From Leptolyngbya sp. SIOISBB (GTDB lineage: Bacteria > Cyanobacteriota > Cyanobacteriia > Phormidesmidales > Phormidesmidaceae), in contig JAAHII010000001.1 in the NCBI GenBank assembly GCA_010671905.1, positions 5,394,001 to 5,458,000 on the forward strand: a stretch of 64,000 bases of DNA, in the 5' to 3' direction. Below are positions 42,988 through 51,324 of the stretch, piece by piece (position 1 is the first letter of the stretch; every line of letters begins with the position of its first letter). The translations under genes and the position numbers were made by a program. The notes beneath the pieces are model-generated. The model did no database searches and was not told the origin of the DNA. It saw only the letters and a list, made by a program, of their open reading frames with translations.

Positions 42988-43091
42988 TATAGCAACAGAA
43001 TGCGGCATGCGGAGGTCGGAATGCGGAATTGAAATGCCTGCCAGAAGGCGATTTCAAAAGTCCAGGGCGACCTGATCAAATTGCGGATTGC
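42988..43091 (+). repeat. TATAGCA-family MITE, copy 4, interrupted by IS110 element 1
   Basis: Starts TATAGCAACAGAATGCGG and runs through heptamer units and the conserved ACCTGATCAAATTGCGG part. It then stops at GGATTGC (43085-43091), where other copies continue TTGCTATA. The missing TATA terminus reappears at 44597-44600 on the far side of the IS110 element, so the transposon split the right terminal repeat. Confidence 0.8.
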
Positions 43092-43129
43092 CCTGAAAAT
43101 AAACCCGTCAAACTCTGATTCGATGTTTC

Positions 43130-44350
43130 TCAAGCGACCTGTTTCGTGAGGTCAACCTGATAGCCAAGTTTTTCCAGTCGCCGCTGTAAGCGATTCACAA
43201 CGGTCTGTTCCTTGCGTTCATCACAGTAGTTGGCCCCGAGGTCTTGATACTCCGTTTTGCGGGAGAGGAGGTGATAGGCGATGGTGAGAATGGAGTGAGC
43301 GACGGCAATGGCGGCGCGTTTTTTGCCCCGCCGAGCGGCGAGACGCTGATACTGGGACTGGAGGTAAGTGTCCTTTTTCCGCCCGGCAGCATGGGCAGCT
43401 TCGGTGAGGGTAGTGCGGAGATAGCGATTGCCGTGGCCGGTGCGACCATGTTTGCGCTTACCGGCACTGGTATTGTTGCCAGGACAGAGTTTAGCCCAAG
43501 AGGCGAGATGTTGAGCGGAAGGAAAACGACTCATGTCCCAGCCGATTTCGGCGAGGAGTTCTTGCGCCCCTCGGGGCCCCACCCCGGGAATGGTCTGCAG
43601 TCGTTTCAGGTCATCCTCCAAAGGGCGCAACCGCTCCCCAATTTCGAGGTCGAGCCGTAAGATGCGAGCATCCAGGGCAGCCAAATGACCTAATTGTTCC
43701 TGGAGGAGAAACCGTTGGTGGGCCCCCATCAGCCCCTGTAAGGCTTGCACGAGTTCGTCATGTTTATTGCGCAAGCGCCCTTTCGCTAAGTTAGCCAGCG
43801 TTTCCGGATCGTCTTCGCCGTTCACCATCGCTCCCAGCATCAGCCGCACACTCTTGCCGGTCAACTTGCTGGCGACGGCACCCAGTTTGATGTTGGCACC
43901 TTCCAGCACTTTCTCTAAGCGGTTGAACTCCCGCGCGCGCTCCTCAATCAGGCTGCGCCGATAGCGCATCAGTTCCCGCAGTTCCCGCTGTGCTTTGGGA
44001 GGCACAAAGCTCCGGCGCAACAGCCCATGACGCATCAGGTCACACAGCCAGTGACTATCCTGTACGTCGGTCTTGCGACCCGGCACCGCTCGAAAGTCCC
44101 GCGCGTTCACCAACCACAGGTCAAAGTCATCCCCTTCCAACAGGTTGTAAAGCGGTTTCCAGTACACCCCCGTCGATTCCATCACCACTTGCTGCACCTC
44201 GCACTCGTGCAGCCAATCTGCCAATTCCAGCAACTCAGTCGTCATCATGCCAAAACTGCGGGTTTCCTTCAGCCTCGGCGTCTGCACATGCACCACACTT
44301 TGACGTTTACCGATATCAATCGCGGCGACTTCTCGATAGACTACTTCCAT
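43130..44350 (-). CDS. IS110 family transposase (DEDD recombinase)
   Basis: About 406 residues from ATG 44350 (a TTG eight codons earlier is possible). The N-terminal RuvC-like DEDD domain shows Asp12 (AAIDIGK), Glu58 (VVMESTGVYW), Asp95 and Asp98 (KTDVQDSHWL). The C-terminal transposase_20 domain begins at RLQTIPGVGPRGAQELLAEIG and contains the conserved S-A-G-K-R-K-H-G-R-T-G-H-G segment with the nucleophilic serine. The gene appears intact and is somewhat longer than the IS621-type. It works with a structured bridge RNA encoded upstream. Confidence 0.95.
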   Translation of the reverse strand: MEVVYREVAAIDIGKRQSVVHVQTPRLKETRSFGMMTTELLELADWLHECEVQQVVMESTGVYWKPLYNLLEGDDFDLWLVNARDFRAVPGRKTDVQDSHWLCDLMRHGLLRRSFVPPKAQRELRELMRYRRSLIEERAREFNRLEKVLEGANIKLGAVASKLTGKSVRLMLGAMVNGEDDPETLANLAKGRLRNKHDELVQALQGLMGAHQRFLLQEQLGHLAALDARILRLDLEIGERLRPLEDDLKRLQTIPGVGPRGAQELLAEIGWDMSRFPSAQHLASWAKLCPGNNTSAGKRKHGRTGHGNRYLRTTLTEAAHAAGRKKDTYLQSQYQRLAARRGKKRAAIAVAHSILTIAYHLLSRKTEYQDLGANYCDERKEQTVVNRLQRRLEKLGYQVDLTKQVA

Positions 44351-44404
44351 CACTCCAGTCTCCAACGTCGACAAACACGGTTCACTAGCCGTTTTTTACA
44401 GGAA

Positions 44405-44570
44405 GAGTTTGCCCTGCGTACTCCCGCTCGTGACGTCGCGAGCGGGGTGACAATTCGGAGTACCTCAAACGGCTTGGGTCAGGTTGCTATACGGGGTACA
44501 TCACACCAAATATGCGCCGACCTCGCAGAACCGATATCTGACATATACTCCCTTTTCATCCTTTTGGAGT
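44405..44570 (-). ncRNA. Candidate bridge RNA of IS110 element 1
   Basis: Located in the non-coding end before the transposase start. On the minus strand it contains CGTATAGCAA (44493-44484), identical to the flank plus core at 44602-44593 and so a target-guide candidate. It also contains CAGGGCAA (44416-44409), identical to the far transposon end plus core at 43095-43088 and so a donor-guide candidate. Between them is a stem: GTACTC (44463-44458) with GAGTAC (44423-44418), enclosing CCGCTCG with CGAGCGG. The right-hand guides are weaker: CGAATTG for target, CCGT for donor. Ends of the RNA are estimates. Confidence 0.6.
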
Positions 44571-44651
44571 GTCGCCACTGCGTCATGAGCCGTTGCTATA
44601 CGTATTTACAGGGTGCAGGCTGACGGCTAACTGTCTCTAGTCAGCCATGCC

Positions 44652-50343: not shown

Positions 50344-51324
50344 ATGAGTGAAGCGTTGCTGCCCCTCGGCATTGATATCAGCAAAACGGATTTTCACGTG
50401 GCCCTGCTGAAAAGCGCCAAACGTTCAAAATATGAGCACTTCTCCAACGATACTGAAGGCTTTCGGCAGCTGAGCCAATGGCTAGACCAGCCAGGCGTGG
50501 GACCGGTTCACGCCTGCTTAGAAGCGACCAGCATCTACGGTCATGCCCTCGCCCTCTACCCGCATCAACAGGGACATCAGGTGAGTATCGTGAATCCGTT
50601 GCGGGTGAAAGGCTACAGTAAAAGCCAACTCTCTCGCACCAAGAGTGATCGCGCCGATGCCAAATTAATTGCTCAGTTCTGCCGTGACCTGAAGCCCGCG
50701 CCTTGGCAACCATCGGCAGTTGAGGTGAGTCAGTTACAAGGCTATACTCGTCGCCTCGATGCCTTAGAGCACATGCTGACCGAAGAGAAGAATCGTCTCC
50801 AAGTCACTCCCCAAGACTTCGAAGCCGATATCGTCGCCCATATCCAGTTTCTGCAGGGGCAGGTGGAAACGGTAAAAAAGCGCTTGCGCGAGCATATTCA
50901 GGCCCATGAGTCACTCCAGTCCCAGCAGGCATTGCTCACCAGCATCGTGGGGGTCGGGGAGAGCACGGCCGCACGGGTGTTAGCAGAAATCGGGTCGATT
51001 GAGCACTTCACCTCGGCGCGTCAACTGGCGGCCTTTGCGGGGCTAACCCCGCAAGAACACACCTCCGGCACCTCCGTGCAGGGCAAAACCCGGCTGTGCA
51101 AAATCGGCAATCGACGACTGCGCAAGGCGCTTTACTTTCCGGCGCTGACCTGGTGGCGGCGGTGTCCCCAAGCCCGCGCTTTTGGCGAACGGCTCTTAGC
51201 CGCAGGCAAGGCCAAGATGCAGGTCATTGGTGCTTTGATGCACAAGCTCATGCGCGTCATCTATGGCATCCTCAAGTCGGGAAAACCCTTTGACCCAGGC
51301 AAACTCCTGCCACGCAGTTCTTGA
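50344..51324 (+). CDS. IS110 family transposase (DEDD recombinase)
   Basis: 326 residues, the same length as the IS621 transposase. DEDD residues are Asp11 (LGIDISKTDF), Glu60 (CLEATSIYG), Asp102 and Asp105 (KSDRADAKL). The C-terminal domain has the helix-hairpin-helix IVGVGESTAARVLAEIG and the serine-containing PQEHTSGTSVQGKTRL with the GNRRLRKAL segment. The gene is intact. Protein and gene differ strongly from those of IS110 element 1, so the two are independent arrivals. Confidence 0.95.
   Translation: MSEALLPLGIDISKTDFHVALLKSAKRSKYEHFSNDTEGFRQLSQWLDQPGVGPVHACLEATSIYGHALALYPHQQGHQVSIVNPLRVKGYSKSQLSRTKSDRADAKLIAQFCRDLKPAPWQPSAVEVSQLQGYTRRLDALEHMLTEEKNRLQVTPQDFEADIVAHIQFLQGQVETVKKRLREHIQAHESLQSQQALLTSIVGVGESTAARVLAEIGSIEHFTSARQLAAFAGLTPQEHTSGTSVQGKTRLCKIGNRRLRKALYFPALTWWRRCPQARAFGERLLAAGKAKMQVIGALMHKLMRVIYGILKSGKPFDPGKLLPRSS

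What the first reader, a model, noticed from the sequence alone, without database searches (positions are those of the whole stretch)
43088..44602. IS110 element 1: second bridge RNA with a target guide and a donor guide matching its boundaries
TTGCTATACG occurs at 44484-44493 inside the element and at 44593-44602 at its flank. TTGCCCTG occurs at 44409-44416 inside and at 43088-43095 across the other end. These are the matches expected of target and donor guides in an RNA encoded before the transposase gene. A double stem (GTACTC/GAGTAC, CCGCTCG/CGAGCGG) separates them. The second halves of both guides are less clear.
Basis: partly seen in the sequence, partly recalled or inferred. Interest (0 to 1): 0.75.

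Follow-up and report, generated by a model that had tools for sequence, protein, structure and literature searches.

The report
Bridge RNA with swapped target guides
A jumping gene in a cyanobacterium carries a guide RNA that appears to steer it into the ends of another family of jumping genes, and comparison with relatives suggests that its two target-reading segments sit in the opposite order to the best-studied bridge RNA.

Summary
The element (43088-44594, transposase on the minus strand) is an IS110-family insertion sequence; the genome holds seven near-identical copies, this one included, and one 86% copy. Both matches are guides of a bridge RNA encoded upstream of the transposase. In 22 non-redundant elements from four phyla the left target guide matches its own left flank (4.82 of 5 bases; 1.47 with partners permuted) and the left donor guide its own right end (4.86; 1.92). 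The target is the terminal sequence TATAGCA of an IS630-type element and a 105-bp repeat; 68 and 49 uninterrupted sites fit two forms of it. Across the 22 it pairs with the right flank (3.50 of 5; 1.79 permuted; p<=1e-5); in this genome the fit is only 2 to 5 of 7. This order reverses that of IS621 and ISEc21 and is the one published for IS1111. I found it nowhere in print for an RNA upstream of the transposase, in a limited search. No right donor guide was found, and activity is not shown.

The parts
43088..44594 (-). IS110-family element, with the core dinucleotide (AA on the minus strand) at both ends
   Evidence: junctions of 8 copies and uninterrupted repeats
43130..44374 (-). DEDD transposase gene (TTG start as listed; an ATG lies 24 bases further in)
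   Evidence: PF01548, PF02371, NF033542; alignment with IS621 keeps D20, E66, D103, D106 and S303 by eye
44519..44522 (-). target loop outer stem, 5' strand (GGTC)
   Evidence: pairs with 44477-44480; all four pairs form in 19 of 22 elements
44509..44517 (-). right target guide with core complement (GCGCATA-TT)
   Evidence: register scan and permutation over 22 elements; fit to this genome's sites weak
44493..44508 (-). stretch between the two target guides, probably a small hairpin
   Evidence: by eye: GGT...ACC here, GG...CC in many relatives
44477..44480 (-). target loop outer stem, 3' strand (GACC)
44467..44474 (-). donor loop stem, 5' strand (AGCCGTTT)
   Evidence: covarying helix, 14 of 23 elements at or above the 95th percentile of swapped pairs
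   Evidence: sequence; not supported by covariation
44409..44417 (-). left donor guide with core (GCAGGGC-AA)
44387..44394 (-). donor loop stem, 3' strand (AAACGGCT)
43088..43099 (-). left donor and core at the right end of the element (TTTTCAGGGC-AA)
43080..43087 (-). right target flank (TCCGCAAT)
44593..44600 (-). left target flank and core (TATAGC-AA)
44583..44592 (-). right donor (CGGCTCATGA); its first two bases covary with the two bases after the left target guide in relatives
42996..43091 (+). interspersed repeat that served as target (left part; its last bases follow the element at 44595-44600)
   Evidence: 34 further matches in the genome; alignment

Best explanation
An IS110-family element whose upstream non-coding end encodes a bridge RNA. 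Its target loop reads the terminal sequence (TATAGCA) of a resident IS630-type element and a MITE-like repeat; its donor loop reads the element's own right end; the recombinase would join a circular form and the target at a shared dinucleotide. In this clade the target loop runs 5'-right target guide, small hairpin, left target guide-3', the reverse of IS621, and the core on the transposase strand is AG (AA here). Read on the other strand the core is CT and the plan equals that of IS621, so the RNA and transposase genes are turned round relative to the recombination sites. Shown by comparison: junctions, uninterrupted sites, guide-flank covariation, two stems. Inferred: transcription, complex formation, circle, strand exchange.
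For: Copies and uninterrupted sites. Left target guide agrees with its own left flank at -5 to -1 in 86-100% of 22 elements against 23-30% for other elements' flanks; left donor guide with its own right end at -5 to -1 in 92-100% of 26 against 25-41%. Permutation p<=1e-5 for left target, left donor and right target guides. A register scan without chosen anchors puts the right target guide 5' of the left one (z 6.4-6.5; the neighbouring register 3.1-3.6). Stems of both loops covary. IS621 read with the same conventions shows the published order.
Against: The left target guide was located by searching for its match, which flatters it; in a control in which other elements' flanks could slide over 11 positions, 14.3% reached 5 of 7 against 19 of 22 for own flanks. 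In this genome the right target guide fits its sites at only 2 to 5 of 7 bases. Anchors of the base-by-base table were set by motif and by eye, in L069 and L098 with the flank in view. No right donor guide was found. Four of 29 elements gave no left target guide.
Confidence: 0.8

Rival explanations
1. A bridge RNA on the ordinary IS621 plan: left target guide first, right target guide 3' of it but missed here, the 5' match being an accident.
For: IS621 and ISEc21 have that order; the right target guide fits this genome's own sites poorly.
Against: No complementarity to the right target 3' of the left guide (z -0.3 to 1.4) but z 4.8 to 5.2 on its 5' side, in one register; the two guides are enclosed by a covarying stem.
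Confidence: 0.12
2. No guides: TTGCTATA and TTGCCCTG are internal copies of the element's ends or chance repeats.
For: The matches are short (8 to 11 bases) and TTGC stands at both ends of every copy.
Against: Relatives keep the matches at the same places with other letters, and the left flank lies outside the element; 100000 permutations did not reach the observed values for any of the three guides.
Confidence: 0.02
3. The RNA is a decayed relic and no longer guides anything.
For: Other copies have frameshifts; nothing here shows transcription.
Against: The window copy has an open frame over all 414 codons, and the left target and donor guides are unchanged in the other copies aligned.
Confidence: 0.06

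Closest known systems
IS621 bridge RNA, IS110 group (PMC11208160, PMC11208158; passages read)
   Same: RNA upstream of the transposase, target loop then donor loop, guides to both strands of the target, a shared core dinucleotide, insertion in repeated sequences, DEDD transposase with a serine
   Different: Order of the two target guides reversed; core AG or AA on the transposase strand; left target guide of 5 bases beside the core instead of 7; the two bases after the 3' guide match the right donor, not the left donor
ISEc21 seekRNA, IS110 type (PMC11187229; passages and section 12 read)
   Same: Upstream non-coding region; RNA matches both strands of the target; target lies in another insertion sequence family
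   Different: There the top-strand match is 3' of the bottom-strand match; here it is 5'
IS1111-group seekRNAs such as ISEc11 and ISPa11 (PMC11187229; same passages)
Elements that target terminal or extragenic repeats: IS4321/IS5075 in Tn21 ends and IS1383 in IS1384 ends (titles in the reference list of PMC11208160); ISPpu9 in REP sequences (abstract start of PMC8450116)
   Same: Insertion in ends of other mobile elements or in short repeats
   Different: Other targets; their guide arrangement was not examined here
ISArsp3 (annotation of L075)
   Same: Belongs to the set analysed: guides at the same places, right target guide 5' of the left
   Different: Outer stem of the target loop forms 3 of 4 pairs in the fixed register

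Membership tests
IS110 family | DEDD_Tnp_IS110 and Transposase_20 domains | tested here: met
   PF01548 106.8 bits, PF02371 80.7 bits, NF033542 284.9 bits, all above cut-off
IS110 family | Catalytic D, E, D, D and serine | tested here: met
   Residues aligned with IS621 by eye; positions
IS110 family | RNA with guides to target and donor | tested here: met
   Covariation of left target, left donor and right target guides with DNA; the RNA itself was not observed
IS110 family | Right donor guide | tested here: inconclusive
   No signal in the regions scanned; the right donor is conserved, which lowers power
IS110 family | Circular intermediate and RNA-dependent recombination | not testable with these tools
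   Needs experiment
IS110 group (IS621 type) | Long non-coding end upstream of the transposase | tested here: met
   Guides at 44409-44517, upstream of the gene
IS110 group (IS621 type) | Left target guide 5' of the right target guide | tested here: not met
   Right target guide found 5' of the left one; IS621 control
IS1111 group | Non-coding region downstream of the transposase (usual) | tested here: not met
   Guides lie upstream
IS1111 group | Top-strand complement precedes bottom-strand match in the RNA | tested here: met
   definition from PMC11187229
IS1111 group | Subterminal inverted repeats of 7-17 bp | not tested
   Seen by eye only: a short TGAAAA motif near both ends
IS1111 group | Transposase phylogeny | not tested
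   No tree was built

The most novel reading that the evidence does not exclude
A clade of IS110 elements in cyanobacteria, Bacillota, Actinomycetota and Pseudomonadota carries an upstream bridge RNA whose gene cassette is turned round relative to the recombination sites: right target guide first, left target guide second, core CT on the opposite strand. The two bases after each 3' guide match the DNA of the other loop, a natural signature of handshake pairing on the other strand. Position of the non-coding region then does not predict guide order, and models built on IS621 may misassign such guides.
Probability: 0.6. Interest if true: 0.7.

Novelty: new variant of a known kind. Interest (0 to 1): 0.58.

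Why it matters
Bridge recombinases are being developed as programmable tools for joining DNA, and guides must be assigned correctly before they can be reprogrammed. Here the RNA lies where IS110-type RNAs lie but its target guides follow the order published for IS1111, so location alone would mislead. The covariation of the bases beside the 3' guides gives independent natural support for handshake pairing. In its host the RNA points at the ends of another transposon family, with 117 uninterrupted sites in two forms (some are two ends of one repeat), and seven mini-elements suggest movement in trans.

Tried and rejected
A right target guide 3' of the left one and a right donor guide in four RNA regions: no signal (register scan). 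An early reading of the core as GC or CA was dropped when relatives showed AG at that place. A helix TGGTGC/GCACCA that would have crossed the donor-loop stem as a pseudoknot does not exceed swapped pairs (14.0 against 13.8) and is not claimed. The hairpin inside the donor loop (12.1 against 11.5) and a hairpin of the donor guide (9.1 against 8.5) do not exceed swapped pairs either. Rfam: no match in the window at gathering scores. Pairing of 44467-44474 with the right donor, by eye, was considered as a right donor guide and put aside, since that segment is explained by the covarying stem.

Dropped rows: of 29 elements compared, four had no assigned left target guide (L066, L092, L095, L102), two are near-duplicates (L105, L065) and one had too little left sequence (L062), leaving 22; 26 were used for the donor guide and 23 for the donor-loop stem. 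L068 (partial) and L076 (the same element as L061) were not used. Of 66 plasmid records with a match, regions of 20 hits were read.

Full report
What is there. The window lies in an 8.3-Mb genome that I take to be a cyanobacterium: the closest relative of the element is in Filamentous cyanobacterium CCP5 (87% protein identity), and the same element was found in a genome of the window's own family. The minus-strand gene 43130-44374 encodes an IS110-family transposase that aligns with IS621 over both domains. The element is rare in its phylum: at E 1e-60, 3 of 385 other genomes in the phylum sample and 1 of 62 in the family had a relative. The genome holds seven copies at 99.6-100%, the window's included, and one at 86%. 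Only the window copy is open over all 414 codons. In the aligned RNA region the near-identical copies differ only by single bases in runs of one letter, which may be sequencing errors.

Junctions and target. On the minus strand each of 8 copies reads TATAGC-AA at the upstream junction and CAGGGC-AA before a variable flank at the downstream one. The target is seen uninterrupted: a repeat of about 105 bp, with 34 further matches (40 of 199 candidates scored), continues TTGC|TATA in 15 of 24 aligned copies. One insertion (L007) lies at the other end of the repeat. Another (L004) lies at the end of an IS630-type element whose two frames match HTH_Tnp_IS630 and DDE_3; L005 looks, by eye, like a decayed relative. 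So the RNA addresses the terminal sequence TATAGCA of an IS630-type family and of a repeat that is probably its MITE (inference). Exact sites: 68 for TATAGCAANCYGYRG (1 for the pattern read backwards) and 49 for TATAGCARAATGCGG (0).

Guides in relatives. I compared the window element with 28 related loci of four phyla (44-88% protein identity). Longest common substrings between the upstream region and the two ends brought up the same two segments repeatedly. A left target guide was assigned in 25 of 29 elements and a left donor guide in 28. In 22 non-redundant elements the left target guide agrees with its own flank at -5 to -1 in 86-100% of cases against 23-30% for flanks of others, with no excess at -6 to -8; in 26, the donor guide agrees at -5 to -1 in 92-100% against 25-41%. 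Permutation of partners gave p<=1e-5 for each. Because the left target guide was found by its match, I also let foreign flanks slide over 11 positions: 14.3% then reached 5 of 7, against 19 of 22 own flanks. The core as assigned is AG, except AA in the window element and L061.

A further match. The two RNA bases after the left target guide and core agree with the first two right donor bases (1.77 of 2; 0.76 permuted; p<=1e-5), not with the right target (0.36; 0.50 permuted). The two bases after the donor guide agree with the right target (1.05 of 2; 0.68 permuted; p 8e-4), not with the right donor (0.32; 0.36 permuted). That these right donor bases belong to the element is shown by copies at different sites of L070 (alignment), L071 and L074 (patterns open at those bases). 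The window element itself matches at 1 of 2. The placement by longest match may flatter the first figure. The pattern resembles the handshake guides of IS621 (PMC11208158, passages), on the other strand.

The missing half. RNA complementary to the right target is absent 3' of the left target guide (z -0.3 to 1.4) and present 5' of it (z 4.8 to 5.2; 32 tests, the rest at most 1.9). Scanning registers at fixed offset gave one peak, z 6.4-6.5, with the neighbouring register at 3.1-3.6. Base by base, +2 to +6 pair at 0.55-0.82 against 0.32-0.37 for swapped partners, wobble counted half; mean 3.50 of 5 against 1.79 permuted, p<=1e-5. Anchors of that table were set by motif and by eye, in L069 and L098 with the flank in view; the scan does not depend on them. 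In the window the guide is GCGCATA-TT (44509-44517). Its fit to the eight sites of this genome is 2 to 5 of 7, best at L007, where the other end of the repeat supplies ATGCG.

Structure. The two target guides are enclosed by a four-pair stem (GGTC/GACC here). In a register fixed by eye, all four pairs, wobble included, form in 19 of 22 elements with six different stems, among them CGTC/GACG, GTTC/GAAC and CGCC/GGCG; L063 forms 2, L075 and L104 form 3 (own mean 3.82, swapped 2.93, permutation p 1e-5). The donor loop is closed by AGCCGTTT/AAACGGCT, in relatives for example AGATGCCC/GGGCATCT or GCAGCCCT/AGGGCTGC (own score 19.7, swapped 14.3; 14 of 23 at or above the 95th percentile; in L062, L063, L064 and L073 the best helix lies elsewhere; control region 15.2 against 14.0, 2 of 23).

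Comparison. IS621, fetched and read by eye with the same conventions, shows the left guide ATCGGGCCT first and GTAG after it, as published. Siddiquee et al. (PMC11187229; [quoted passage not shown] The clade studied here has the IS110 position of the RNA and the IS1111 order of target guides. Read on the other strand it has a CT core and the IS621 plan, so I think the genes are turned round relative to the recombination sites. Durrant et al. (PMC11208160, passages) draw six diverse elements in a figure not held here, so the arrangement may be shown there. Library searches with the terms bridge RNA, IS110, IS1111, seekRNA, LTG, pseudoknot and cyanobacteria listed no paper on this point; I saw titles and abstract beginnings, and the library lacks most subscription journals.

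Host picture. Seven mini-elements of about 170 bp carry sequence like both element ends but no transposase gene and, by length and alignment, no bridge RNA. Four of seven sit at the end of the target repeat; three sit at sites reading AGGAC, AGGGC or AGAGC before the core. They look like derivatives moved in trans. L061 has the target guide AGGGC and sits behind 15 bases identical to its own left donor and core.

Limits. All evidence is comparative, the elements are related, and several placements were by eye. No right donor guide was found. Whether the RNA is made and works is unknown.

Noticed in passing
L077-L083 (seven places in the window's genome, none in the window): Mini-elements of about 170 bp with IS110-like ends around an unrelated hairpin-containing middle; four of seven at the end of the target repeat. 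Possible IS110-derived non-autonomous elements.
   Followed up: partly
42996-43091 and genome-wide: An interspersed repeat of about 105 bp with TATAGCA at both ends, probably a MITE of an IS630-type element.
   Followed up: partly
window 50365-51279: A second IS110-family transposase of another group (open frame 333 aa); the genome has 31 matches to PF01548.
   Followed up: no
L002-L007: Near-identical copies differ from the window copy by single-base changes in runs of one letter in the RNA region and by frameshifts in the gene: decay or sequencing errors.
   Followed up: no
L132: In a Variovorax plasmid, head-to-tail copies of a relative 1488 bp apart, separated by the same 12 bases.
   Followed up: no
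L136, L137: In IS621 the two bases after the left target guide (TG) equal the first right donor bases; in L137 one of two agrees.
   Followed up: no
L061: Target guide and donor guide share AGGGC, and the left flank equals its own left donor over 15 bases: possible self-targeting.
   Followed up: no
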